A stretch of 64,000 nt of DNA. Source: an uncultured Lewinella sp. GTDB lineage: Bacteria; Bacteroidota; Bacteroidia; Chitinophagales; Saprospiraceae. This document shows positions 30,085 to 64,000 of this stretch, piece by piece (the stretch's first letter is position 1; every line of letters begins with the position of its first letter). A program made the position numbers and the translations under genes. The notes beneath the pieces were generated by a model, which saw only the letters and a list, made by a program, of their open reading frames with translations, had not been told where the DNA came from and made no database searches. The stretch covers positions 1-64,000 of the forward strand of contig CAJXOS010000003.1 of assembly GCA_913057725.1 (NCBI GenBank). Direction: 5' to 3'.

Positions 30085-33000
30085 CTAGAAATCGCCAGTG
30101 CTGTCAATAGGTGCTGTAGTGCCATTTTGGTCAGCAGGTAGCCCACCAGCGTCACTTGGCGGAGCATCGATCTCTATTTCTGCCGGACAACCGCTTGGGC
30201 GATCATTCTGCAGATATACTTTTATTTCAGAACCACGCAAGATTTTTGCACCCGGACTGAAGGCCGGCTCCTGACGGTAAACGAAGGCATCTGCAGGGAT
30301 GGCTACATCACCCACCGTTTCACCCAGTCGTAAGTCTAGTCCTGGTAAGAGGAAGCGCACCTCACTCAGTCGTTTGCATCGCAAAGATGGCGTACGCACA
30401 TAATCATCCTTTGACTTGCTGACCACAAACTCTAAGGTGCTACCCTGCATCACTTTTACCCCACGCTTCACGTCTGAAGGAAGGTATTTTCTACCCTGAT
30501 AGTAGAAATGCAAAATGGTGCTATCGGCCAGCTTTGCATCAAAAACAGTCTCACGTACGCTTGTTTTTACTTGCAAGCTCTTAAGCATGCGTCGGTAGCG
30601 AGTTAGCTCGTCGGCAGCTTCTTCGAAAGAAGGAATAGGCACTTCACGTGGCTGACCAATGGTGGTCAGGTAAATAGTCCGATTTTTTTTAACGCGTCGT
30701 AGCGCCTCTGGCTCCTGATCAATAACCAAGCCTATGGTGCTGTTCATATCATAAGGCGCCTCCGTCATACTAACGCTAAAGCCTCGGCTACGTGCTTTTT
30801 GCGTAGCATTTTCAATGCTCATACCCTCATAGTTCTCTACTTGCACAGAGCTTCCATGGCTGGTATATACATGTAGGAAGCCATTAAGTAGGAAGAAGCA
30901 AAGGAGAAGCAAGACGAACATCGCCCCTAGGTTGCGAAGGAAATACCGAGTCTGTAAAAAGTCAAGTATTCGGCGCCACCACTGGGCTTTTACGGCAGAG
31001 GGTTTGCTACCACTATTTTCTGTCATGTTATTGGTTGTGTCGTCAATTAGTGTCAAAGGTGTAGGTGTTGAAGATGGGGCTTCAACGATAGGTTCTTGTT
31101 CTACAGGGGCTTCTACCGGAATAGGAGTTATGGTTTCTTCCACCACCGCTGGCCGCTTAGCGGCTACGCGAGCAAAACCATATTCCAAGATCTTTTGAAT
31201 AAAGGCAGCGGGCTTATAGCCAGCTAATGCCGCTTGGTGGAAGATGGCAGTAGCAGGCGTCATTCCTGGCAAGGAGTTTACCTCAATAACTTGAGTTTCC
31301 GCTTTGCCATCGGGTAGAACCCGTACAAAAGCATCAATGCGGCAGTAGCCTTCTACTTCTAACAGGCGTGCTACTCGTTCCAGGGTTTGCTGTACTTGTG
31401 GAAGGATGTCTTTATAGCCAAAACCATTCACGGCCAAGCGGGCAGGTGTAAGGTTTTGACCTTCTCCTGCGAGAAATTTTTCTTCCAATGAGAGTACCTC
31501 ACCACTTGCTAAGGTTTCGCTAGGCTCAAAAATCTCATAACGGATTTTGCCGTGCTCATTCAAATGAGTGAGCATACCCCCTGTGATTTCTAGGAAGTGG
31601 ATACCGTTGTCCTGCTGAACCAACTGCTCAAAGAGGATTTCACTCTTGAACGAAAACTCCTCCTTGGCCCGTAGTTTCAGGCGGCGGCGATGCTCGCTGT
31701 CTTGCTCGGTGTTCAGTTGGAAAATCAGCTGAATGTAGGCTTCTAGTTGTTGGCGGTCATGGATGACCTTTACCGCAGAGCTGCAGCCATCATCAACTGG
31801 TTTTGCAATCAATGGATAACCAAATGCCTCTTCTACGCGCGAACAGAAGCGTTCTGCATCAACGATATAGTCGTCTTTAGGTAGTAGCAACTGGTTAGCT
31901 ACCGGCAGACCGTGCTTGCTGAGTAAGCGAAGCGTCCGATATTTATCAATCGTAGTACTGGAAGACTTGATGCCAGAACCATTGTAAGGCAGCTGGCGTG
32001 CTTCAAGCTCCATTTGTATTTGACCATCCTCGCCTGGACGTCCATGTAAAGCGATGAAAACGCCATCTACGTTTTTCGCCAGCTTGTCGTAATTCAGTTT
32101 TTCTGGAGAGAATACGACATTGGCGGAGGCGTACTTATCAGTAAGTGCGACAAACTCCTTACGGATCTGCTCTAACAAAGGATGCTTCTTCCAATTCAGG
32201 ATTTTATCCTTGATGTCGTCGGCATTGTCCTTCAGTAGCAAGTTGATCGGCAGCTGGTAAAGTTGATGTTGACGATCTGCGCCGGTTAGGAATACCGGTA
32301 CAGGCTCATAATCAATCGAGCTGGCAAGCTTCTCAAAAATATTCCGTCCGCTTTCCACAGAGATGTGCCGCTCAAAGGAGTAGCCACCAAGGACAACGGC
32401 AATGCGTTTTTTGCGATTAGCCTCGGCTTGAAGGGCCGCAATATTACTGTCCAACTGCTGGAGTAGTGTTCTCCAATTTTCTTGTTCCGGTTGCTGAGTT
32501 AGTCTCTCTTGTATGGATATCCGAATGATCAAACTCAGGAACTGGCTTGGGTTGAGCCCAATTTCTGCTGCCTGGTGGAAGAAGAATGAACTTGGCAACA
32601 TACCCGATGTCGTATTCGGGTCATTTAGGAAAATGGTACCTGTTGGGGTATAGAAACCATCAATCCGAGCATAGACCTGAAAACCAAGCTTATTGAACAG
32701 CTTCTCGCACTCCCGGCGGATTGACTCTATCGCTTCATTAGGAAGGTCAATTGGTGTTTCCTTCCGCGATAGGCCGGGCATGTATTTTGAGCGATAGTCA
32801 AAAACTTCACCTCCCTTAATGATCTCAGTAGGTGGAAGCGCGGTCACTGAATTATCCTCTGTACGCAGTACGATACAAGAGAACTCCTTTCCGGAAATGA
32901 AAGACTCAAGAATGACAGTCTCTTCTGTCTGTGCGGCCTCTAACTCGAAAAGTTGGCCGAGGTGCTCCGCTTTTGCGGTTTCCTCATTGAGGAATGCAAG

Positions 33001-33858
33001 GAGCCGCTCCGGGTGGTGAATCGTTTCAGTTTTGGAGCCAAGTTTTGCCTGTAATGGAAAACCAAGTCCATCACGTATGTCGCCTAATACTTTTACGTAC
33101 TCTACGCGATCATAATCTGAACGGTCGTGCCATTCCTCCAGTGGGATTAGCTCTCGGAAGAAGGCCCGATTGACGGCCATTTCAAAACCTTCTAACCCTT
33201 CTTTTTCTTCGATAATACTTACACCGATGGAAGAGCCTTGGTTGGCAGGACGAATGACCAATGGGAACCCAATCTCTTTACCAGCTTGCTGATACAATTG
33301 GTGCACATTGGCGACCAGCCATTCATCTCTCGTAAGTTTGCTCACCGTTGGGCAAGCGAAACCGCGTTCCTGCATCAATTCTTTCTGCAGGGCCTTGTCC
33401 ATCCCAATCTCACTGGCACGTACCCCACTACCTGTATACGGGATTTGTAGTTCTTCTAGTTGGCGTTGAATAGCACCATCTTCACCGTAGATGCCGTGTA
33501 GTGCCAGGAAGGCGACATCGATATGTTGAGTGATATCTTCCGGAGTAATAGGCTTGCCAATAGTGCGAAGCATATCTACTTGCTCCGTTGAAGACTTCTC
33601 ACCTAAGCTTTCGCTATAAATCTGGAAGCCATTCGGCGAATCAGGTAACTTATCTACCGGAGGGTAAAAATCGCGTATACTTCCTTTATAAATGTAATGC
33701 CAATCCAGTAGCACCCAATTGCGGTGACTGTCGACAAAAATCGGAACCGGGGTAAACAGACTTTGGTTGAGATTGTCGTAAACGGTACGCCCGCCCGCAA
33801 AGGATATTTCTCGCTCTCGAGAAGGGCCTCCGAAAAAAATTCCGACTCTGATTTTCAT
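30085..33858 (-). CDS. Tandem D-alanine--D-alanine ligase modules fused to TM helix and PASTA-like repeats
   Basis: Module 1: VGIFFGGPSREREISFAGG, ALHGIYGEDGAIQ, GFPLVIRPANQGSSIGVS. Module 2: IAVVLGGYSFERHISVESG, ALHGRPGEDGQIQ, VIEVNSLPGMTPATAIF. Then TM NLGAMFVLLLLCFFLLNGFLHVY and three PASTA-like segments. Confidence 0.85.
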   Translation of the reverse strand: MKIRVGIFFGGPSREREISFAGGRTVYDNLNQSLFTPVPIFVDSHRNWVLLDWHYIYKGSIRDFYPPVDKLPDSPNGFQIYSESLGEKSSTEQVDMLRTIGKPITPEDITQHIDVAFLALHGIYGEDGAIQRQLEELQIPYTGSGVRASEIGMDKALQKELMQERGFACPTVSKLTRDEWLVANVHQLYQQAGKEIGFPLVIRPANQGSSIGVSIIEEKEGLEGFEMAVNRAFFRELIPLEEWHDRSDYDRVEYVKVLGDIRDGLGFPLQAKLGSKTETIHHPERLLAFLNEETAKAEHLGQLFELEAAQTEETVILESFISGKEFSCIVLRTEDNSVTALPPTEIIKGGEVFDYRSKYMPGLSRKETPIDLPNEAIESIRRECEKLFNKLGFQVYARIDGFYTPTGTIFLNDPNTTSGMLPSSFFFHQAAEIGLNPSQFLSLIIRISIQERLTQQPEQENWRTLLQQLDSNIAALQAEANRKKRIAVVLGGYSFERHISVESGRNIFEKLASSIDYEPVPVFLTGADRQHQLYQLPINLLLKDNADDIKDKILNWKKHPLLEQIRKEFVALTDKYASANVVFSPEKLNYDKLAKNVDGVFIALHGRPGEDGQIQMELEARQLPYNGSGIKSSSTTIDKYRTLRLLSKHGLPVANQLLLPKDDYIVDAERFCSRVEEAFGYPLIAKPVDDGCSSAVKVIHDRQQLEAYIQLIFQLNTEQDSEHRRRLKLRAKEEFSFKSEILFEQLVQQDNGIHFLEITGGMLTHLNEHGKIRYEIFEPSETLASGEVLSLEEKFLAGEGQNLTPARLAVNGFGYKDILPQVQQTLERVARLLEVEGYCRIDAFVRVLPDGKAETQVIEVNSLPGMTPATAIFHQAALAGYKPAAFIQKILEYGFARVAAKRPAVVEETITPIPVEAPVEQEPIVEAPSSTPTPLTLIDDTTNNMTENSGSKPSAVKAQWWRRILDFLQTRYFLRNLGAMFVLLLLCFFLLNGFLHVYTSHGSSVQVENYEGMSIENATQKARSRGFSVSMTEAPYDMNSTIGLVIDQEPEALRRVKKNRTIYLTTIGQPREVPIPSFEEAADELTRYRRMLKSLQVKTSVRETVFDAKLADSTILHFYYQGRKYLPSDVKRGVKVMQGSTLEFVVSKSKDDYVRTPSLRCKRLSEVRFLLPGLDLRLGETVGDVAIPADAFVYRQEPAFSPGAKILRGSEIKVYLQNDRPSGCPAEIEIDAPPSDAGGLPADQNGTTAPIDSTGDF

Positions 33859-45746: not shown

Positions 45747-48700
45747 ATGAGCTGGAAATCTACCCTTTCTTTATTTGCCACCGTCATCCTTAGTGTTTTC
45801 CAATTAAATAGCCAGACTTGTGGAGACACCTTTTTTGATTCTGGAGGACCCAATGGTAATTACAGTAACGATGAAACCCAAGAGTGGACCATCTGTCCAG
45901 ATAACCCAGGTGACCTGGTTACCCTAAACTTCGTCTTTGTGGATGTTGAGGGTTGTTGTGATGACTTGGGCGTGTATAATGGTTCAGGATTTGGTGATCC
46001 GATCAACCTTGATGTTGAAAACCCAGAAATCTTTACCTCTTCGGCGGCTGATGGTTGCCTTACCGTTACCTGGGATTCAGATTTCTCGGTTACTAATGGC
46101 GGTTGGGAGGCTATTATCAGTTGTGACCCACCACCACCATGCCCTAACCCGACAGTTCCAGCGGTAAGTGATGTAACTTCTTCGGGAGCTACTTTTTCTT
46201 GGAATCAAGTAGGTGATGTAACAGCCTGGGATGTAGAAATCGTGGTTGCTGGCACACCAGCTACAGGTTCTCCTACGATCAGTGACCTTAGCGAGACTAC
46301 CTTCACCTGGAATGAGGGCGAAAGTGGTACTGCATATGAACTATACGTCCGTGGCCAGTGTGCTGAGGATGGTTTGTTCACCAACTGGATAGGACCAGTT
46401 CAGTTTACTACTGTTCCCGGTTGTGGCGACACATTCTACGATAGTGGTGGCCCTAATGGTCAATACCAAAACGTTGAATTTCAAGTCTGGACTTTCTGTC
46501 CGGATACCCCAGGAGACCTGGTGGTACTGGATTTCACTTTTGTGGATGTGGAAGGTTGTTGTGATGATTTGATGATCTATGCAGGTACAGGGACCGATGT
46601 ACTTCTAGAAGGCGATCTTGAAGGGCCAGGTACCTTTACCTCTACGGCAGCTGATGGTTGCTTAACCGTACTTTTTGATTCAGATTTCTCAGTAACCAAT
46701 GAAGGATGGGAAGCAACGATCGACTGTATCGCTCCTCCTCCTTGTGCAGATCCGATCAACTTGGCGATCACTGAAGTGACGTCTATTTCTGCAGTTTTGA
46801 GCTGGGGACAAATCGGATTGGTTAATACTTGGGATATCGAAATCGTACCAGCCGGCACACCTCCTACTGGTACGCCTACTATAGCTGGTGTTACAGAAAA
46901 CCCATACACTTTCACCAACCTAGATAGTGGAACGGAGTACGATGTGTATCTACGCGGCCAGTGTGAGGGTGATGAGCCTTTTACTGCTTGGGTAGGTCCA
47001 GTAAACTTCACTACAGTACCAGGATGTGGCGACTCTTTCTTTGATAGTGGTGGCCCAGATGCTGGATATGATGTCAACGAATTTGAAATCTGGACCTTCT
47101 GCCCGGATAACCCAGGTGATCTGGTGAGTATAGATTTCACATTTGTTAGTGTGGATAATGATTTCTTGCAGGTTTCTAGTGGAGCGGATGGTAGCGTGTT
47201 ACTTGGTCAAGTACAAGAGCCAGTTTCCTTTACCTCTGTTTCTGAGGATGGCTGTATTTCCGTTCTTTTCGATTCTGATTTCTTCGGAAACGGTGAAGGT
47301 TGGGCTGCTGATATTACTTGTGCAGAGCCACCTGAGTGTGGTGAGCCACTTCTAGTGGACGTGTCAACTATTACTTCTTCTTCTGCGATTCTAAGTTGGA
47401 CCCAGTTAGGGCCAGTAATGGAATGGGAAATTGAAGTGGTACCAGCAGGCACTATGCCAACTGGCGTACCAACTACTACCGGAATAACAGAAAATCCATA
47501 CACCCTCACTGGACTAGAGAGTGGAACAGATTACGAATATTATGTTCGTGGCGTATGTGCAGGTGATGATGAGTTCACACCTTGGGCTGGTCCGGTCTTC
47601 TTCCGTACAGTGCCAGGATGTGGAGATTCTTTCTTCGATCCAGGTGGGCCAGATGGTGATTATGAAAACAACATCTTTGAAAGCTATACTTTCTGTCCGG
47701 ATAACCTCGGAGATGTAGTAATCATTGAGTTCAGTTTTGTAGATCTAGAACTCTGCTGTGACGTTCTGCAGGTCTTCAACGGCATTGGTACTGACGATCC
47801 GATCAATCTGGATGTAGAGGAGCCAGGTTTGTTCTTCTCTACGACTGATGACGGCTGTCTAACGGTGACCTTTGATTCTGACTTCTCCGTTACGGATCCA
47901 GGTTGGGAAGCATCTGTTTCTTGTGCCTCTTGTATTCCTGACGACGTGATCTTGTCTGAAGCAGTGAACGTAGACTTCTTCGGTGCAAGTACTGCGGAAA
48001 TTTCAGTAGATCTAGGTACTGCTACGCAATACCTTATCGAATATGATACACTTGGCTTTACGCCAGGAATGGGTACCATCATCATGGGTACGGAAGAGTT
48101 GATTACTATTGAAGGATTGGAGGAGAACACTGATTATGAGTTCTACCTCATCAATCAGTGTGATGATGGGACAGAAAGTATCCGAATTGGACCATTCACC
48201 TTCTCTACCATCTTCAGTAATGATATTGGTATCACTGGCCTGCTGGAGCCGATTGAAGATTGTGGTCTTGGCCAAGGTGAGCCGATCCGCGTGGAGATCA
48301 CCAACTTTGGTGCTAATCCACAAACGCTCTTCCCGCTTAACTTTAGCGTGAACGGAATACCCTCAGGGGTAAATCAGCCGGTTGATGGATTCTTTACCGG
48401 AATTATTAGCCGCGATAGTACAGAGGAGTTCTTATTCGACCTCAACTACGACTTTAACGAGCCTGGTGAATACGTTATTCAGCTGTGGACAGAAATGCAG
48501 AATGACAGCGACTTAAGTAATGATACCATTACGGTAGTCCTCAATCGTTTTGCGCCACCATTGTATGAGGACTTCGAAAACGGCTTGCCTGATTACTTCT
48601 CAATTGCTGGTAGTACCTTCTTTGCTCCGGCATTTGACCACGGTAATGAGACGAACGTTATGACGGCGAATCTCTTCAATGATTTCAATGAATTTATTCT

Positions 48701-49541
48701 TGATCTACCAGTCCTTGGGCCGATTGAGGAAACCGATACACTTTTCTTCGATTACCGCTATGTAGATTGGCCTGGTGGTACAGTGGCTACCACGAACCTC
48801 ACGGCTACGGATATACTTTCTGTATTGGTGTCGGTTGATTGTGGTGAGACCTTTGGAATTGCTTTCATACAGCCAGGCACGAGTCACGAGCCAAGTTCGG
48901 ATTTCCGAACGGTTGCGGTGCCGCTAGAAGATCTTGCTGGCGAAAATGTGCTCATTCGCATTTCTGGAACCTATGGTCCTTCCACTTCATTTGCTGATTA
49001 TTGGCTCGATGTGGACAACATTAATCTACCTCGCTGTAGTGAGTTTGGCGCGAATGCAGAAGTACAGGATGCGAATCCTGGAATGGATGATGGCCAAATC
49101 GTTGTAGTTCCTGAAGGTGGAGTTGGACCGTTTGAGTTCATGTGGGATACTGGAGACATGACCGATACGCTAACAAATCTAGCACCAGGTACCTATAACG
49201 TTACTGTAACCGACCGCGGAGGTTGCTCATTTGAAGGATCATATACGGTACAGGTTGTCGTTAGTACGGATGACCTAAGCGCAGTAATCGGAGATATGCA
49301 GCTCAGCCCTAACCCAACACCAAATCAAGCTATGCTTCGTGCCAACTTTGCTCAAGCAGTAGATGCACAGTTAGATGTTGTGAATGCACTTGGACAGAGC
49401 ATGTGGCGAAGCCCAGTTTATCGAAATGTGAATAGCTTGAATGAACAGATTGACTTGACCGGCGTGCCGGCCGGTATTTACTTTGTTCGAGTTCAAGCTG
49501 CTGGGCAGACTAAGACAATTCGACTGGTTAAGACTCAATAA
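45747..49541 (+). CDS. Large secreted adhesin-like protein: four CUB-FN3 repeats, CARDB/MAM-like region, SprB repeat, T9SS type A sorting domain
   Basis: Four repeats starting CGD(T/S)FFDSGGPxGxY...FCPDNPGDLV...DGCLTVxFDSDFSVT, each followed by an FN3-like segment; SprB-like NPGMDDGQIVVVPEGGVGPFEFMWDTG; C-terminal LSPNPTPNQAML...GIYFVRVQAAGQTKTIRLVKTQ. Confidence 0.88.
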   Translation: MSWKSTLSLFATVILSVFQLNSQTCGDTFFDSGGPNGNYSNDETQEWTICPDNPGDLVTLNFVFVDVEGCCDDLGVYNGSGFGDPINLDVENPEIFTSSAADGCLTVTWDSDFSVTNGGWEAIISCDPPPPCPNPTVPAVSDVTSSGATFSWNQVGDVTAWDVEIVVAGTPATGSPTISDLSETTFTWNEGESGTAYELYVRGQCAEDGLFTNWIGPVQFTTVPGCGDTFYDSGGPNGQYQNVEFQVWTFCPDTPGDLVVLDFTFVDVEGCCDDLMIYAGTGTDVLLEGDLEGPGTFTSTAADGCLTVLFDSDFSVTNEGWEATIDCIAPPPCADPINLAITEVTSISAVLSWGQIGLVNTWDIEIVPAGTPPTGTPTIAGVTENPYTFTNLDSGTEYDVYLRGQCEGDEPFTAWVGPVNFTTVPGCGDSFFDSGGPDAGYDVNEFEIWTFCPDNPGDLVSIDFTFVSVDNDFLQVSSGADGSVLLGQVQEPVSFTSVSEDGCISVLFDSDFFGNGEGWAADITCAEPPECGEPLLVDVSTITSSSAILSWTQLGPVMEWEIEVVPAGTMPTGVPTTTGITENPYTLTGLESGTDYEYYVRGVCAGDDEFTPWAGPVFFRTVPGCGDSFFDPGGPDGDYENNIFESYTFCPDNLGDVVIIEFSFVDLELCCDVLQVFNGIGTDDPINLDVEEPGLFFSTTDDGCLTVTFDSDFSVTDPGWEASVSCASCIPDDVILSEAVNVDFFGASTAEISVDLGTATQYLIEYDTLGFTPGMGTIIMGTEELITIEGLEENTDYEFYLINQCDDGTESIRIGPFTFSTIFSNDIGITGLLEPIEDCGLGQGEPIRVEITNFGANPQTLFPLNFSVNGIPSGVNQPVDGFFTGIISRDSTEEFLFDLNYDFNEPGEYVIQLWTEMQNDSDLSNDTITVVLNRFAPPLYEDFENGLPDYFSIAGSTFFAPAFDHGNETNVMTANLFNDFNEFILDLPVLGPIEETDTLFFDYRYVDWPGGTVATTNLTATDILSVLVSVDCGETFGIAFIQPGTSHEPSSDFRTVAVPLEDLAGENVLIRISGTYGPSTSFADYWLDVDNINLPRCSEFGANAEVQDANPGMDDGQIVVVPEGGVGPFEFMWDTGDMTDTLTNLAPGTYNVTVTDRGGCSFEGSYTVQVVVSTDDLSAVIGDMQLSPNPTPNQAMLRANFAQAVDAQLDVVNALGQSMWRSPVYRNVNSLNEQIDLTGVPAGIYFVRVQAAGQTKTIRLVKTQ
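45819..48000 (+). repeat. Four tandem CUB-FN3 coding repeats, period ~600 nt
   Basis: Repeat starts (TGT of CGD) at 45819, 46422, 47025 and 47619: spacing 603, 603, 594 nt. The last unit lacks an obvious canonical FN3. Confidence 0.8.
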
Positions 49542-57985: not shown

Positions 57986-60900
57986 CTACCGCCCCCGAAC
58001 TAATCTAAAACCGAGATAGATTTCCGTCACGGAGGGGGCGCGGTATTGTCGGGTACTTACCCTGCAGTCATAGTCCTGCTGGATCCAGGCACCTCCACGG
58101 ATGACACGGTAGGAGCCATATTCGGGGCCAATCGGATTCCGTTGCGATTGTGCAGAGTAATCGCTATACCAATCGTAACACCATTCCCAAACGTTGCCAC
58201 TCATATCAAAGGTGCCTGCGTTGTTAGGCCTCAACTGGCCCACAGGGTGCGTCTGATCTTTGCTGTTGCGGTCGTACCAGCCCAAGGTGTTCATATCGGT
58301 ACCACCGGCGTAGATGTGACTCTTATTGAGCATAATTCCTCCCCGGGCTGCATATTCCCATTCCGCCTCCGTAGGTAGTCGATAGCCGTTTGTCGTTCCT
58401 CCCCGGGTGCTATTTAAATCTGCAAAACCTGTTTTTAGATTTATAGTGTAGGCTGGTTGATAGCCATGCTGCTCACTTAGCCAGTTGCAGTACTCCACAG
58501 CGTCCAACCAACTCACGTTGATTACCGGACGATTACTGCGCCCCCAACCATTATCATCAGGTTTTGGACGACCGGTAGATTCACAGAAGAGATCATATTC
58601 TGCAAAGGTTACCTCGTAGATGCCCATGTAGAAATTATCAATCGAGACTTCGTGTACCGGGCGTTCATCCTCGGCATATTCTCCGGTCTCGTCTCCCATT
58701 AAAAAGCCGCCACCGCTGATGAGTTCCATGCGTGGCCGCGGAATATCTCTCAATAATCGAACGGGGTTTGATAGCACAAATGGATTTGTGCGGAGTAGAT
58801 CTTTTTGTGTAGAAATTTCGCGCTCAAATCGCTTGTAGCCAGGTGCATCAATGATGAGGTCAAATACCTCAACATCCTGGTTCGTTAGCTCTCCTTCAAT
58901 GTAGAAGTCTCCATACTTACCCAGTTGCCCGTTGAACTGCAAAAGCGATTGCGTCACGCGGTTTGGCTTTTGTTGAAGTGTAACAACAAAGTTCGATACA
59001 GGGCCCCGTGTAGTCGCATCGATGACCTCCCCTTCAAGCCGGAAGGCCTGTGCTCGAGTTTGCTGTGGGGGTGGACTCTGCGGTCTGCTTGAAGGTTGTT
59101 TCCAGCTGTGTGCAAATTCTTGCTCGAATGTCTGAAGGAGGTGTTCAGATGCAGGGTCAACGAGCGTTATTGTTAGCTGTTCTAATTCTCCCGGACTACG
59201 CCTTGGAGGTTCCATGCGCAAGTCTACCGATGAACGTCCAGCTGCAATCACTTGGCTCACTTCCGTTGGTTGGGTGCCGGCACCCTGAGCGCTCATAATG
59301 AGTTCTCCTCCATCCGGGTATATAGCAGGATCTACGTAGTAATTCACCGACACTGTTAGTACGCGATCACCAATGTGTACTGGAGTGATATCAACAATTC
59401 TAGAGCGTTCACGTCCAATTAATGTCTCAAGGTTAGGGCTGAAGTTGATGGACTGGAAGTAATCTAGAGAATCAAGCAAATCATAGTAATACAAACTTGA
59501 GTCTTCGGGGCTACCAGCATAATAATGAATCACGCCTCGGGTGTGCCAGATATCGAGAAGTGTACTATCTGATCGTTCTGCTGCATCGAGTAGTTCGAGG
59601 GCTTCTGGTAGTACTGCTTGCCCAAGGCTGTCACTCAGATAACCATTGAGTTCCTGCACGGCGGCATTGAGGTATAGCTTACTTAGATTAGCATTGGCCA
59701 GGGAGTAGGTAATTGCCGTACCATTGAACGATTCACCATTGCTATGGAGGAAACTAGAGGCGGTCCGTAGGGCATTTCTAAAGGCTACGCTAGCGCTTGT
59801 GTCTCCCAAAGTAGCAACTGATGCTTGTTCTACGCCCAGATTATTGTAGATAATAGCACTGTCAATAATCTCAGTTTCTTGAACGAAGAAGTAATCCCGC
59901 AATGGCGGCTCCTCATTTCCAAGGGTTTGGTTTTGCGGCTCCGAGAAAACCAACTTGTAGAGCTGGTCAGACCCACCGAGATGCCATCCTACTAGCAAGA
60001 GAACAAGATAAGCGGCAGTGAGCCAAAGTGCACGCTTGAGGTCGGTACGGTCTTCTTCCTGAGGAGCCAGGTCTTCCTCTTCTATTTCTTCAATCCAGTT
60101 GTCTTCAAGCCATTCTCGTAAAGACTTGACCGGGGGGCTCATCTTCTGAGCCATCTTTTGAGCAGGTTGACTGGAAGCTTGATTTACAATTCGCTCTAGG
60201 TCTGCTTCTTGAGCCGGAGTTAACAATTCATGCTGTAGCATGAAGCGCATGGTCTGCTGATGGTTTTCGTCCATCGGAGCCAAGGCGAAATCTTGTACCG
60301 CTAGCGCTGACTCCAGGTCGCGATGAGCATGGGAGCCTTCACTAATTAACCGTACGGCGACCAATTCTTCTTGCACTGCCGCTCGGGCCAAGCGTTCATC
60401 GGACGGGCTAAGGCTAGCGATCATTTCTCGTCGCAGACGTTCGTCAAATCGATCTCCCTGCAAAGTCGGGATACGAGCAAGGCGTAGAAGATTATCATAG
60501 GTGATATCAGCACCCAGCGCTCTTCCTATGGCGATTGTCATTTCCCAACTTGGAATCGGGAAGACTGCTAGGGCCTTAAACCAACGCACCAGCATTGGAT
60601 CATAAGTTTGCAAGTACTCTTCTATAAAGCGCCAACGCCGCCAATTACGATGTTCTGTATCACTATCCTGTCGCGCACTAATCTGAGCGGCCTGCCAGCG
60701 ATCATAGGCGTTACCGTCAGGTAGCAGTTCGCCGTCGTTTTCAATGTGGAGAGCGGCCCCTGCTAGCCCTGCGCTGTCGGCTGGGAAAACATTGAAAATT
60801 CGCGACAGTAGTTTTTCACGGTAACTCCAACTGGCTGGCGGCACTGGTGTTAGAAGCAGGCGCAACTCCCATTGCCGAAGTACATTCGCGTAGGCAGATC

Positions 60901-62524
60901 GAAGATTTGGACTTTTTTGAGCATAGGGATTAATCAGATCATGCAAATCACCCATGACCAGCAAGCGATGCGAACCATAAGCCCGCTGGAGTTGATCCAA
61001 TGTTCGGCCTTGCGGATAGTAATGGTTCCAGAATCGATTGAAGTGCTGGCGATAGTAGTACACTTCCATGTGTACATCCTGCTCCTTTAAGCTATCTGCT
61101 AGATAAGAAAAAAGGTGCCCCAGATGGCTGGCCCGACTTTGCTCATCGATCAGGCAGAGGTATTCGCTCGGCTGTGTGGCGTATTGATATTGGATAGCAG
61201 GGTACCCTCCCTTTTCAATCGTCGTATGCAGGGTTCCTTCCAGGTCAAGTTCCCTACGTAAGCCTTCTTGCCGGAGTCGTAGCGCATCCGCCAGACGAAG
61301 TTGAATATTCGCTTTGACGATATAGCTGTTCTGATCACGTAAGGGGATGAAATATGGTGCCTTGTCTGAATGTGCAAAGCGCGCACTGATTTCGTCTTGC
61401 TTTTTCTGCTGCAGCTGTTCCGCCAAAGGCCTACGCTTTTTACGCGTCAACCATCTTAACCAATAGTAAAGTAAACCTAAGCCTAGGGCCGCAAGTAGAA
61501 TGTAAAAGCCCCAACCCCATGTGGCCAGTAGGGATAGACGGTCTGGTTGTAATGTAGCAGTTGGCAAAAATGCTTGTTCACGACCTACTTTTACCTCTAG
61601 TGTATGAGTAGTACTACAAAAACCGTTGGCAGTAGTATCGGTAACCGTCAGGCGAACGGTATACTGACCATTTTGAGAATAGGCATGGCTAGTCTCGGCG
61701 CCGCCGTCATCTTGCAAACCATCACCGAAGTCCCATTCGTAGTACCAGTTTTTTGAGACATCAAGTGCCGTTTCTGGAATAATGGCTTGGAAGGATTCTT
61801 CCTGATCCGCTTCTAATTCTGTATTTGCGTTGATGGCATCAATCGCAGGAGCGTTGAGGCAGAATACTGCGAACGACTTTTGAGTGTCGTAGATGGTGTC
61901 TGTATCGGGTGGCCAAACCTGTAGCCGAACTTCCCGCAAATAAGCGCCGCTATCAATGCCAGGAACAACAAACTCCCAATTCAGTGAGCTGGTATCAAAT
62001 GCTTCTTCGCTTTGACTCGCTACATCAATATAGCTCCACCGCCATCGCCAATCGCCACGTTCATCCGGGAAGCTAGTCTTGTTTTCAAAGCGCACTGTAT
62101 CTCCGGGAATACCGTAATCAGGGCCTTCTATGTATACGGTTAGTTGCTCCTGTCCGACCTCATGTTGGGTAAGGGCATAGTAAGCGTAAAATAGTATGGC
62201 TAATGCAGGAATGACGAAGAGCCATTTCCACCACTCTATAGGATCAGATTCTAACTCAGGTGGTGTCCATGGGCTGCTAACTTCCAGGTAGTACTGATCA
62301 AATATCTCGTAGAACTTCAGCTGCTCCGATTCACTACGCACCAGTACCGGTGCAAGTAGTTGCTTAAGACGTGCGGGCTCATTGAGATAAGCCTTGGCCG
62401 GACCTCCTAATATTCGTAGAGCACGCAGACGATCTGCAGGGCTAAGCTGAAAGCCTGCCAACTCGAGTCGCCGAAACAGGTGTTCCAGCGGAAAGGTATC
62501 TATATGCTTACTGAATTCCGGCAT
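57986..62524 (-). CDS. Large multi-domain membrane protein: PKD domain, degenerate vWA-like region, C-terminal SUMF1/FGE-like domain
   Basis: TM WWKWLFVIPALAILFYAYYAL; PKD NWYYEWDFGDGLQDDGGAETSHAYSQNGQYTVRLTVTD; TM WGWGFYILLAALGLGLLYYWL; TM LWLTAAYLVLLLVGWHL; C-terminal MELISGGGFLMGDE...YRLPTEAEWEYAARGG...GTFDMSGNVWEWCYDWY...YRVIRGGAW...LGFRLVRGR. Confidence 0.88.
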   Translation of the reverse strand: MPEFSKHIDTFPLEHLFRRLELAGFQLSPADRLRALRILGGPAKAYLNEPARLKQLLAPVLVRSESEQLKFYEIFDQYYLEVSSPWTPPELESDPIEWWKWLFVIPALAILFYAYYALTQHEVGQEQLTVYIEGPDYGIPGDTVRFENKTSFPDERGDWRWRWSYIDVASQSEEAFDTSSLNWEFVVPGIDSGAYLREVRLQVWPPDTDTIYDTQKSFAVFCLNAPAIDAINANTELEADQEESFQAIIPETALDVSKNWYYEWDFGDGLQDDGGAETSHAYSQNGQYTVRLTVTDTTANGFCSTTHTLEVKVGREQAFLPTATLQPDRLSLLATWGWGFYILLAALGLGLLYYWLRWLTRKKRRPLAEQLQQKKQDEISARFAHSDKAPYFIPLRDQNSYIVKANIQLRLADALRLRQEGLRRELDLEGTLHTTIEKGGYPAIQYQYATQPSEYLCLIDEQSRASHLGHLFSYLADSLKEQDVHMEVYYYRQHFNRFWNHYYPQGRTLDQLQRAYGSHRLLVMGDLHDLINPYAQKSPNLRSAYANVLRQWELRLLLTPVPPASWSYREKLLSRIFNVFPADSAGLAGAALHIENDGELLPDGNAYDRWQAAQISARQDSDTEHRNWRRWRFIEEYLQTYDPMLVRWFKALAVFPIPSWEMTIAIGRALGADITYDNLLRLARIPTLQGDRFDERLRREMIASLSPSDERLARAAVQEELVAVRLISEGSHAHRDLESALAVQDFALAPMDENHQQTMRFMLQHELLTPAQEADLERIVNQASSQPAQKMAQKMSPPVKSLREWLEDNWIEEIEEEDLAPQEEDRTDLKRALWLTAAYLVLLLVGWHLGGSDQLYKLVFSEPQNQTLGNEEPPLRDYFFVQETEIIDSAIIYNNLGVEQASVATLGDTSASVAFRNALRTASSFLHSNGESFNGTAITYSLANANLSKLYLNAAVQELNGYLSDSLGQAVLPEALELLDAAERSDSTLLDIWHTRGVIHYYAGSPEDSSLYYYDLLDSLDYFQSINFSPNLETLIGRERSRIVDITPVHIGDRVLTVSVNYYVDPAIYPDGGELIMSAQGAGTQPTEVSQVIAAGRSSVDLRMEPPRRSPGELEQLTITLVDPASEHLLQTFEQEFAHSWKQPSSRPQSPPPQQTRAQAFRLEGEVIDATTRGPVSNFVVTLQQKPNRVTQSLLQFNGQLGKYGDFYIEGELTNQDVEVFDLIIDAPGYKRFEREISTQKDLLRTNPFVLSNPVRLLRDIPRPRMELISGGGFLMGDETGEYAEDERPVHEVSIDNFYMGIYEVTFAEYDLFCESTGRPKPDDNGWGRSNRPVINVSWLDAVEYCNWLSEQHGYQPAYTINLKTGFADLNSTRGGTTNGYRLPTEAEWEYAARGGIMLNKSHIYAGGTDMNTLGWYDRNSKDQTHPVGQLRPNNAGTFDMSGNVWEWCYDWYSDYSAQSQRNPIGPEYGSYRVIRGGAWIQQDYDCRVSTRQYRAPSVTEIYLGFRLVRGR

Positions 62525-62545
62525 TTACAAATGGACGTACTGAGA

Positions 62546-63481
62546 CTAGAAAATTCCTGATACGGCTTCCAGGTCTTCTTTGGTCTTCACCAAAACCGAG
62601 AGGTGATCTCTCAAGAATTTACTCTGTTCGTCAGCTGCCTTATCCATGATGTCGCGCATTTCGAGGATGCGTAGCCAGGCGATGAGTTCAGCTGTAGCAG
62701 GGGGCTTTCGGATAGCCTGCTGGCGTACTTGTCCGAACTTAGCGATTAGCATTTGCAGCACGTCGTCTGTATAGCTAGTAGCATCACCTAATTGCGTTTT
62801 GGCAATTGCTAGTAATTGATCCTGCTCAGGGAAAGGAATATGATAGAACACGCAACGGCGTAGGAAGGCATCCGGCAAGTTCTTTTCTGAATTACTGGTC
62901 ATGATCACAACGACACGTTGCCCATGGGCACGTTCCACTGTGAAGTTATCCTGCTCCTTGATTTGAAATTCATATCGCTCGATTTCCGCCAGGATATCAT
63001 TGGGGAAATCGCGTGGCGCTTTATCGATTTCATCAATTAATACCACACTACTTCTGGCTTCATCTCCCAGGCCTGCTCTAAAAGCTTGACCTTGCCCACT
63101 GGCAGGGTTGGTGAGCGCGATGGCTCTGCCCAAAGCTTGGAGTTCGATAAACTCAGCGGTGTCTGCACCTTTTTTGCTGATATTGGCAGCTTGGAAGTGT
63201 GCCAAGGCATCGTAGGTGTAGAATAAGTCTCGGGCGGTGGAAGTGGTCTTGGTATTGAAGATTAAAGGCTCAGATGAAAACTTGAGATCGCCATCCAGGC
63301 GAGCAAGCTCTGCTGCAACCTTAAATGCCAGTCGGGTCTTTCCTGTACCTGGTTCTCCGGTGAGTAAGAGCGGTTGTTCCAGGGCGATGGCTACTTCAAC
63401 CGCATTGCGGAGGGCATCGCTCATAATGTACTTATCCGCGCTAGGAGTAATGGCGGAGGAGGTGTGGACACGTATGCTCAT
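62546..63481 (-). CDS. MoxR family AAA+ ATPase
   Basis: Walker A LLTGEPGTGKTRLAFKVA; Walker B VVLIDEIDKAPRDFPNDILAEIE; sensor MTSNSEKNLPDAFLRRCVFYHIPFP. Confidence 0.93.
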   Translation of the reverse strand: MSIRVHTSSAITPSADKYIMSDALRNAVEVAIALEQPLLLTGEPGTGKTRLAFKVAAELARLDGDLKFSSEPLIFNTKTTSTARDLFYTYDALAHFQAANISKKGADTAEFIELQALGRAIALTNPASGQGQAFRAGLGDEARSSVVLIDEIDKAPRDFPNDILAEIERYEFQIKEQDNFTVERAHGQRVVVIMTSNSEKNLPDAFLRRCVFYHIPFPEQDQLLAIAKTQLGDATSYTDDVLQMLIAKFGQVRQQAIRKPPATAELIAWLRILEMRDIMDKAADEQSKFLRDHLSVLVKTKEDLEAVSGIF

Positions 63482-63957
63482 TGTACGATATTGTTATTGT
63501 ACTGATCGATTATTTTCTTGAGTTCCAGTTCTACATCTTCCATGTAGTGCTCGGTAGCGCTGCCAAAGACGTTGCGCAGCAGCTCCCGGCGGGAACGAGA
63601 ATTTGGTGATGTTTGCTTGTAACGCTCCAACCAACGACCAATATCACGTTGGTGAACCATGCCGAGTTCTGGCAAAGGACGTAAAGACTCGGCAGCATCA
63701 AGGGCTTCTACTACCTGCTTGCGGATCTCCTCGTCGGTTTCGTCATATTCAATAGCCAGGAAGAAGAGTACAGTGGTAGCACTCTGGATTTGGCCTTTGT
63801 GGCAAAACTCGTTGATGAACCAACTAGCAGCAGCAGGGGTGAGGGCAGCGTCCCAGTCATACTGACTAATGTGCAGGTAGGTGCACACAAAATCTGTCGG
63901 CTTTAAATTGAGCAACCTGGGGCTGCGTTCAAGTACGTAGGTTAAATCCTTCTCCAT
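63478..63957 (-). CDS. Hypothetical helical protein translationally coupled to MoxR
   Basis: 159 aa ORF, end overlaps MoxR start by 4 nt (63478-63481); no family recognised. Confidence 0.7.
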   Translation of the reverse strand: MEKDLTYVLERSPRLLNLKPTDFVCTYLHISQYDWDAALTPAAASWFINEFCHKGQIQSATTVLFFLAIEYDETDEEIRKQVVEALDAAESLRPLPELGMVHQRDIGRWLERYKQTSPNSRSRRELLRNVFGSATEHYMEDVELELKKIIDQYNNNIVQ

Positions 63958-64000
63958 TAGAGGCTCGTGCTCATTCGGCGGAAGGCCTACCGTTGAAAAG

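What the first reader, a model, noticed from the sequence alone, without database searches (positions are those of the whole stretch)
57986..64000. MoxR AAA+ / giant PKD-SUMF1 membrane protein locus, truncated by the window edge
Seen: three tightly packed minus-strand genes (63478..63957, 62546..63481, 57986..62524), with a 4-nt overlap and a 21-nt gap. A MoxR ATPase precedes a 1512-aa protein with a helical N-terminus, TM, PKD, TM, a long cytoplasm-predicted region, TM, and a SUMF1/FGE-like C-terminus. Knowledge: MoxR ATPases usually partner with vWA proteins, and MoxR-vWA modules together with SUMF1-like domains have been described in multi-component NTP-dependent bacterial systems. Inference: an energised membrane assembly in which the ATPase acts on the intracellular part of the giant protein and relays to PKD/SUMF1 parts outside the cytoplasm. 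This is the best candidate for an uncharacterised system in the window.
Basis: partly seen in the sequence, partly recalled or inferred. Interest (0 to 1): 0.8.

Follow-up and report, generated by a model that had tools for sequence, protein, structure and literature searches.

The report
Membrane-spanning iSTAND–MoxR–vWA conflict system
Three neighbouring genes of a Lewinella-type marine bacterium form a membrane-spanning version of a predicted but untested bacterial self-defence machine, in which parts outside the cell's inner membrane are wired by an ATP-driven switch to intracellular suicide-type proteins.

Summary
The three genes are real. The third continues past the window edge; its full 363-aa product carries EAD11 and iSTAND domains. 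The locus is therefore an iSTAND–MoxR–vWA 'ternary conflict system' (Kaur et al. 2020), not an unknown system. The 'missing' vWA partner is hidden in the 1512-aa protein. Its N-terminus and residues ~423–594 align in order with the two halves of compact CoxE-type vWA proteins from sister iSTAND loci (hhalign 87% and 92%). A TM–PKD–TM segment is inserted between the halves, and TM3, TPR/Ig-like repeats and an FGE-fold domain follow. Across 25 relatives, positive-inside charges and a near-constant ectodomain cysteine pair support N-in / PKD-out / vWA-in / C-terminus-out. The order iSTAND–MoxR–giant holds at 23 distinct loci. In one same-genus copy a Cys-rich region replaces the FGE domain, which lacks the catalytic cysteine pair and is probably a ligand-binding lectin fold. 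Seventeen other genes of this genome carry EAD11, several fused to TIR, SIR2, CHAT or NB-ARC. Best reading: an envelope-facing sensor coupled by MoxR–vWA remodelling to EAD11-recruited cytoplasmic effectors. Identity is firm, topology well supported, mechanism and anti-phage role inferred. It is an architectural variant of a known, experimentally uncharacterised kind.

The parts
63478..64000 (-). iSTAND hub gene, C-terminal part only; the gene runs on to contig position 64569 (363 aa): EAD11 (res 4-79) + iSTAND (res 102-272)
   Evidence: Open 5' frame at the window edge; full gene on the contig; Pfam iSTAND 6.2e-17, EAD11 9.8e-5, below its cut-off here but 6.2e-6 and above it in the Lewinella cohaerens orthologue
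62546..63481 (-). MoxR-type AAA+ ATPase, 311 aa; Walker A GEPGTGKT, Walker B LIDEID, conserved TSN-E and FLRRC motifs
   Evidence: Pfam AAA_5 1.2e-10; best NCBIfam MadB-type AAA ATPase 1.3e-21 but far below that model's cut-off; motifs invariant or nearly so in A7
57986..62524 (-). vWA-effector 'giant', 1512 aa
   Evidence: Single uninterrupted ORF; full-length homologues in same-genus genomes, 57-58% identity
62240..62524 (-). Cytoplasmic N-terminal helical domain, res 1-95, homologous to the N-terminus of compact CoxE-type vWA proteins
   Evidence: hhalign A6 vs A5 87%, E 3.8e-6
62168..62224 (-). TM1, res 101-119
   Evidence: Hydropathy; positive-inside N-in in 16 of 20 untied relatives
61532..62167 (-). 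Extracytoplasmic insert, res 120-331, with PKD domain (res 225-313) and a cysteine pair C222/C303
   Evidence: Pfam PKD_4 4e-15, PKD in 12 of 25 relatives; near-constant Cys pair
61475..61531 (-). TM2, res 332-350, followed by a K/R-rich cytoplasmic stop
   Evidence: Positive-inside C-in in 22 of 22 untied relatives
60743..61258 (-). Divergent vWA domain, res 423-594; MIDAS Asp positions D460 and D526 kept, DxSxS serines lost
   Evidence: hhalign A2 vs A5 92%, E 7.4e-7; control vs MoxR 2.4%; column counts
60125..60724 (-). Conserved helical region after the vWA, res 601-800
   Evidence: Conserved columns in A2; 60-68% identity within the genus; no family assigned
59975..60031 (-). TM3, res 832-850
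   Evidence: Positive-inside C-out in 19 of 22 untied relatives
59420..59857 (-). Helical TPR-like region, res ~890-1035, predicted extracytoplasmic
   Evidence: Helices in a low-confidence model; reading as TPR is inference
58745..59401 (-). Two beta-sandwich (Ig-like / carboxypeptidase-regulatory-like) domains, res ~1042-1260, fast-diverging (29-30% identity within the genus)
   Evidence: pLDDT ~70 in this part of the model; Foldseek hits to surface Ig-like domains with low TM-scores; region identities
57995..58735 (-). SUMF1/FGE-fold (C-type-lectin-like) domain, res 1264-1510, no catalytic Cys pair
   Evidence: Pfam FGE-sulfatase 4.8e-53; best solved relative is Treponema denticola TvpA (2y3c), ahead of true FGEs

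Best explanation
The locus is an iSTAND-type MoxR–vWA ternary system in which the vWA component is a three-pass inner-membrane protein. Its N-terminal helical domain and vWA domain are cytoplasmic. A disulfide-linked PKD ectodomain between TM1 and TM2, and a swappable C-terminal module (here an FGE/lectin-fold domain on TPR and Ig-like stalks) after TM3, face the periplasm or exterior. Proposed action (inferred): the outside modules bind a surface-borne signal such as an adsorbing phage, a foreign cell or envelope damage. Binding reorients the cytoplasmic CoxE-N/vWA halves, which sit next to the membrane helices. MoxR ATP hydrolysis remodels the vWA–iSTAND complex. The iSTAND hub, through its N-terminal EAD11, then recruits EAD11-tagged effectors in the cytoplasm (TIR, SIR2, CHAT and NB-ARC proteins encoded elsewhere), giving NAD+ depletion or death of the infected cell. 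Shown: gene identities, conserved order, hidden vWA homology, effector swapping, EAD11 partner set. Well supported: topology. Inferred: signal, direction, interactions and phenotype.
For: iSTAND and EAD11 in gene 1. Order iSTAND–MoxR–giant on one strand at 23 distinct loci. iSTAND is found in 29 of 299 genomes of the order and in none of 14 controls. Two independent colinear matches of the giant to compact CoxE-type vWA proteins of sister iSTAND loci, control negative. Topology: charge bias TM1 16:4, TM2 22:0, TM3 19:3 in 25 relatives; ectodomain Cys pair near-constant. Same-genus copy L166: core 60-67% identical but FGE replaced by a Cys-rich region (9% identity). Relatives carry FGE in 15 of 25 and WD40 propellers in 3. 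FGE domain closest to the ligand-binding variable protein TvpA, catalytic Cys pair not kept. 17 partner genes with EAD11 in the same genome, including TIR, SIR2 with an adjacent nSTAND1 gene, CHAT and NB-ARC. EAD11 in 23 of 29 iSTAND+ versus 37 of 270 iSTAND− genomes. An outside-in role for lectin-fold sensors in related MoxR–vWA loci was already proposed (PMC10907252).
Against: No phenotype or interaction data exist for this class in the papers I could find. EAD11 of this hub scores below Pfam's cut-off (22.7 vs 26 bits), and the EAD11 partners are not adjacent to the locus. EAD11 also occurs in 37 genomes without iSTAND, so other hubs use it; the association test ignores phylogeny and genome size. 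The AlphaFold model of the vWA region is poor (pLDDT 50) and Foldseek gave no significant match, so the vWA rests on profile comparison and its MIDAS is degenerate. Kaur et al. place sensing in the iSTAND/VMAP component, not in the vWA protein's C-terminus.
Confidence: 0.55

Rival explanations
1. Inside-out deployment (the model of Kaur et al.): iSTAND senses an invader inside the cell, MoxR ATPase rearranges the vWA protein, and the C-terminal FGE/repeat module is the effector that acts at the membrane or cell wall.
For: This is the published model for the class, with FGS the commonest effector and membrane/peptidoglycan-linked variants noted (PMC7159879). The C-terminus is the swapped part, as expected of effectors.
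Against: The FGE domain looks catalytically dead and lectin-like. It lies outside the cytoplasm, away from intracellular invaders. The giant has a second extracytoplasmic domain (PKD) that an inside-out model does not need.
Confidence: 0.27
2. A non-immune membrane assembly chaperone like RavA–ViaA, NorQD or CoxD–CoxE: MoxR–vWA remodels a membrane or surface client for maturation.
For: All well-studied MoxR–vWA pairs work this way (PMC7159879 section 8), and RavA–ViaA acts at the inner membrane (PMC9489729).
Against: No client or metalloenzyme genes are linked: flanks are a GNAT gene and a permease here and differ in relatives. iSTAND and EAD domains are not part of those systems. The C-terminus is exchanged between near relatives, and the system is patchily distributed and plasmid-borne in Haliscomenobacter.
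Confidence: 0.13
3. The SUMF1 domain is an active formylglycine-generating (sulfatase-maturing) or EgtB/PvdO-like enzyme.
For: Family-level match to PF03781.
Against: Catalytic Cys pair of FGE not retained: the first Cys aligns to Gln and only one Cys remains. Closest solved relative is a non-enzymatic variable protein. Scores are far below NCBIfam cut-offs for EgtB, PvdO, SenA and GldK.
Confidence: 0.02
4. Chance neighbourhood or assembly artefact of unrelated genes.
For: The window cuts the third gene.
Against: Same order and strand at 23 distinct loci in independent genomes, including single-contig assemblies.
Confidence: 0.01

Closest known systems
iSTAND ternary systems (MoxR–vWA subsystem 2; Kaur, Burroughs, Iyer & Aravind 2020, PMC7159879)
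   Same: Same three components; EAD on the iSTAND N-terminus; CoxE-type 4-helical N-terminus on the vWA; FGS (SUMF1) the commonest effector; N-terminal TM segments in ~28% of cases; membrane and cell-wall proximity proposed.
   Different: Here a whole TM–PKD–TM ectodomain splits the CoxE-N and vWA halves, the FGE module is put outside by TM3, and the DxSxS MIDAS motif is lost (0 of 26). PKD, EAD11 and Lewinella are not mentioned in the paper's main text; its supplementary tables were not available to me.
DGR-diversified lectin sensors on MoxR ternary systems (Thiohalocapsa PB-PSB1; PMC10907252)
   Same: C-terminal FGE/CLec domain on the MoxR-partner protein; some targets have TM regions placing CLec in the periplasm; proposed outside-in sensor role.
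   Different: No reverse transcriptase in this genome and no template-like repeat of the FGE 3' end, so no DGR; the third component is iSTAND, not VMAP.
RavA–ViaA / CoxD–CoxE / NorQD MoxR–vWA chaperones
   Same: MoxR plus CoxE-type vWA logic; membrane association known for RavA–ViaA (PMC9489729).
   Different: No iSTAND/EAD, no swapped effector, no linked client genes here.
Treponema denticola TvpA (PDB 2y3c)
   Same: Best solved relative of the FGE domain, E 5.9e-31.
   Different: TvpA is a DGR target lipoprotein; here the domain is tethered to a MoxR–vWA core.

Membership tests
iSTAND ternary system | iSTAND protein adjacent to MoxR | tested here: met
   Pfam PF19995 6.2e-17, 62.9 bits vs cut-off 24; genes overlap by 4 nt
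iSTAND ternary system | MoxR without the VMAP-type extensions | tested here: inconclusive
   311-aa compact AAA+ protein; no VMAP-type MoxR set was aligned for comparison
iSTAND ternary system | vWA component with CoxE-like 4-helical N-terminal domain | tested here: met
   hhalign 92% (vWA) and 87% (N-domain) to compact VWA_CoxE proteins of sister iSTAND loci; negative control 2.4%
iSTAND ternary system | Variable effector domain at the vWA C-terminus, FGS commonest | tested here: met
   FGE in 15/25, WD40 propellers 3/25, Cys-rich replacement in a same-genus copy
iSTAND ternary system | EAD, peptidase or TIR domain fused to the iSTAND N-terminus | tested here: met
   EAD11 at res 4-79; sub-threshold here (22.7 bits), above threshold in the Lewinella cohaerens orthologue (26.5 bits)
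iSTAND ternary system | Role in conflict with phages or other invaders | not testable with these tools
   Predicted only, also in the source papers
vWA domain with canonical MIDAS | DxSxS motif plus second Asp | tested here: not met
   First Asp 19/26, Asp at the aligned second site 16/26, DxSxS 0/26; so 'vWA fold by homology', not 'canonical MIDAS vWA'
VMAP ternary system | VMAP component | tested here: not met
   Third component matches iSTAND, no VMAP family hit
DGR-diversified system | Reverse transcriptase and template repeat | tested here: not met
   No RVT_1 in the genome although controls ring; no template-like copy
Formylglycine-generating enzyme | Catalytic Cys pair | tested here: not met
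   RGGAWIQQDYDCRV: first Cys aligned to Gln, one Cys left
MadB-type ATPase | Equivalog score for MadB_ATPase (NF047784) | tested here: not met
   77 bits vs cut-off 475

The most novel reading that the evidence does not exclude
A bacterial trans-envelope immune receptor: PKD and exchangeable lectin/FGE, propeller or Cys-rich modules outside the inner membrane sense a phage or foreign cell at the surface, before genome entry. A split CoxE-N/vWA domain read by a MoxR AAA+ motor passes the signal inward to an iSTAND–EAD11 hub that recruits TIR/SIR2/CHAT effectors, functionally analogous to eukaryotic surface immune receptors.
Probability: 0.3. Interest if true: 0.72.

Novelty: new variant of a known kind. 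Interest (0 to 1): 0.42.

Why it matters
Most bacterial immune systems are thought to sense invaders inside the cell. A MoxR–vWA conflict core built around a three-pass protein with exchangeable outside modules would be a concrete, testable candidate for surface sensing wired to intracellular suicide effectors. It also gives the iSTAND class, which has no experimental characterisation that I could find, a compact three-gene target in a cultured species (Lewinella cohaerens DSM 23179 carries the same triad).

Tried and rejected
Profile search of the giant's core against PDB sequences: no significant hit. AlphaFold of the core with only 3 admissible sequences: pLDDT 50; Foldseek top hits at E >= 0.26 (HGPRTs), not usable either way. 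AlphaFold of res 851-1512 with 2 sequences: only the two beta-sandwiches were modelled at pLDDT ~70; Foldseek gave Ig-like surface proteins at low TM-score. Idea that the post-vWA region is the N-terminal domain of the separate effector genes in sister systems: visually similar motifs, but hhalign 0.7%, dropped. First attempt to build a CoxE profile from Pfam-hit loci picked wrong ORFs; it was replaced by the four compact vWA genes of sister iSTAND loci. DGR hypothesis: rejected. Phage carriage: no match among 50,697 phage records. Promoter/terminator scan: not above shuffles. Alignment A1 was mis-specified and not used.
Full report
WHAT IS THERE. The three ORFs are at the stated coordinates with the stated spacing. 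The window is the first 64 kb of a 107-kb contig, so I read on. The 159-aa 'gene' is the C-terminal part of a 363-aa protein, contig C3 63478..64569. It matches Pfam iSTAND (PF19995, 6.2e-17) at residues 102-272 and, weakly, EAD11 at 4-79. The Lewinella cohaerens orthologue matches iSTAND at 3.7e-15 and EAD11 just over the cut-off. Beyond the triad there is a GNAT-like gene 150 nt upstream and a convergent permease gene downstream, so the unit is three genes.

KNOWN KIND. An inactive STAND protein with an N-terminal EAD, a compact MoxR ATPase and a third protein ending in a SUMF1/FGS domain is the published description of the 'iSTAND ternary systems', subsystem 2 of the MoxR–vWA conflict systems (Kaur et al. 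2020, PMC7159879). That paper reports FGS as the commonest effector (~22%), N-terminal TM segments in ~28%, and a CoxE-like four-helical domain at the vWA N-terminus. The one piece missing from the window was the vWA.

THE HIDDEN vWA. No Pfam model finds a vWA in the giant. I collected iSTAND loci from 299 genomes of the order (29 positive, 0 of 14 control genomes), took out the neighbourhoods and called genes. The giant's residues 381-800 are conserved in 26 proteins. At four other iSTAND loci the gene after MoxR is a compact 379-406-aa protein that Pfam recognises as VWA_CoxE. Profile-profile comparison aligns giant residues 423-594 with the vWA half of those proteins (92%, E 7.4e-7) and giant residues 1-80 with their N-terminal half (87%, E 3.8e-6). 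A control comparison with MoxR gives 2.4%. The two matches are colinear, and the TM1–PKD–TM2 segment sits where the compact proteins have only a linker. So the giant is a CoxE-type vWA protein split by a membrane-crossing ectodomain. Its MIDAS is degenerate: the first Asp is kept in 19 of 26, an Asp at the second site in 16 of 26, and the DxSxS motif in none. Structure prediction could not add to this, because only three sequences were admissible (pLDDT 50; no significant Foldseek match).

TOPOLOGY. In 25 relatives I located the three hydrophobic segments and counted K+R in 15 residues on each side. TM1 favours N-in (16:4), TM2 C-in (22:0, sign test 5e-7) and TM3 C-out (19:3, 9e-4). These counts ignore relatedness among the sequences. 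Nearly every relative with a full ectodomain has a pair of cysteines there, mostly ~75-105 residues apart (C222/C303 here), as expected of a disulfide outside the cytoplasm. PKD is recognised in 12 of 25. The replacement C-terminus of the same-genus copy L166 is Cys-rich, again fitting an outside location.

CONSTANT CORE, SWAPPED TIP. Same order and strand occur at 23 distinct loci (24 rows, one duplicated), often with overlapping or nearly touching genes. In three of them the MoxR-to-giant gap exceeds 600 nt. Within the genus, CoxE-N, vWA and iSTAND stay 62-74% identical, while the Ig-like stalk falls to 18-30% and in L166 the FGE domain is gone (9%). Other relatives end in WD40 propellers, carboxypeptidase-regulatory-like domains or unassigned sequence. 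Outside the phylum the core occurs on cyanobacterial plasmids next to MoxR, in one case with a caspase gene upstream and in another with a GUN4 domain, and in Haliscomenobacter hydrossis on a plasmid with CHAT and caspase genes. No phage record carries it.

THE FGE DOMAIN IS PROBABLY NOT AN ENZYME. Its best solved relative is the diversity-generating retroelement target TvpA (5.9e-31), ahead of true FGEs. The catalytic Cys pair of FGE is not retained. There is no reverse transcriptase and no template-like repeat in the genome, so it is not under DGR diversification.

THE EAD11 NETWORK. Nineteen EAD11 matches in 18 genes occur in this genome, one of them the hub. Partners include TIR–EAD11 next to an FRG-domain gene, two SIR2–EAD11 genes each followed by an nSTAND1 gene (one of the two EAD11 matches is marginal), a CHAT–EAD11, an NB-ARC–EAD11 and multi-TM EAD11 proteins. 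Across the order EAD11 is in 23 of 29 iSTAND+ genomes and 37 of 270 iSTAND− genomes (Fisher p 3e-13). This ignores phylogeny and genome size, and EAD11 clearly also serves other hubs. Homotypic EAD coupling is a published proposal, not something shown here.

MECHANISM. Shown: identities, order, hidden vWA homology, swapping, partner set. Well supported: topology. Inferred: (i) outside modules sense; (ii) the signal reaches the cytoplasmic CoxE-N/vWA halves through TM1–TM3; (iii) MoxR ATP hydrolysis remodels the vWA–iSTAND complex; (iv) EAD11 recruits TIR/SIR2/CHAT effectors. I prefer outside-in signalling because a catalytically dead lectin fold outside the membrane cannot attack an intracellular invader, and the same direction has been proposed for lectin-bearing MoxR loci (PMC10907252). 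The inside-out model of Kaur et al. remains the main rival. I give ~0.95 to the class assignment, ~0.85 to the topology and ~0.4 to the outside-in mechanism; the 0.55 in the best explanation is for the whole statement with its inferred steps marked.

VERDICT. A real, conserved locus of a known but experimentally uncharacterised kind, in an architectural variant (membrane-split vWA with PKD ectodomain, external FGE, lost MIDAS serines) that the main text of the founding paper does not describe.

Noticed in passing
window 30085-33858 (-): A 1257-aa protein with two D-Ala-D-Ala ligase units in tandem plus a PASTA domain, an unusual fusion.
   Followed up: partly
window 45747-49541 (+): 1264-aa protein with CUB-like and fibronectin III repeats, SprB repeat and a T9SS C-terminal sorting domain: a probable secreted or surface protein.
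   Followed up: partly
L176:4096-6875 and L190:3647-6593 (own genome, contigs C141 and C102): Two SIR2–EAD11 genes, each overlapping a following nSTAND1 ATPase gene; look like EAD-linked defence modules.
   Followed up: partly
L185:56-1114 and L186:3766-4869 (contigs C254 and C83): Multi-TM proteins ending in EAD11: possible further membrane entry points to the same network.
   Followed up: partly
L166:2968-7053 (same-genus genome, G207 C68): Giant homologue whose FGE domain is replaced by a Cys-rich repeat region of unknown family.
   Followed up: partly
L168, L169, L148, L170: iSTAND loci with compact vWA genes followed by separate genes, in L168 and L170 with CHAT/NB-ARC or caspase domains; useful soluble counterparts of the membrane form.
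   Followed up: partly
L194-L202 (other families in the phylum): Shorter relatives (about 720-970 aa) of the giant core, up to four copies per genome.
   Followed up: no
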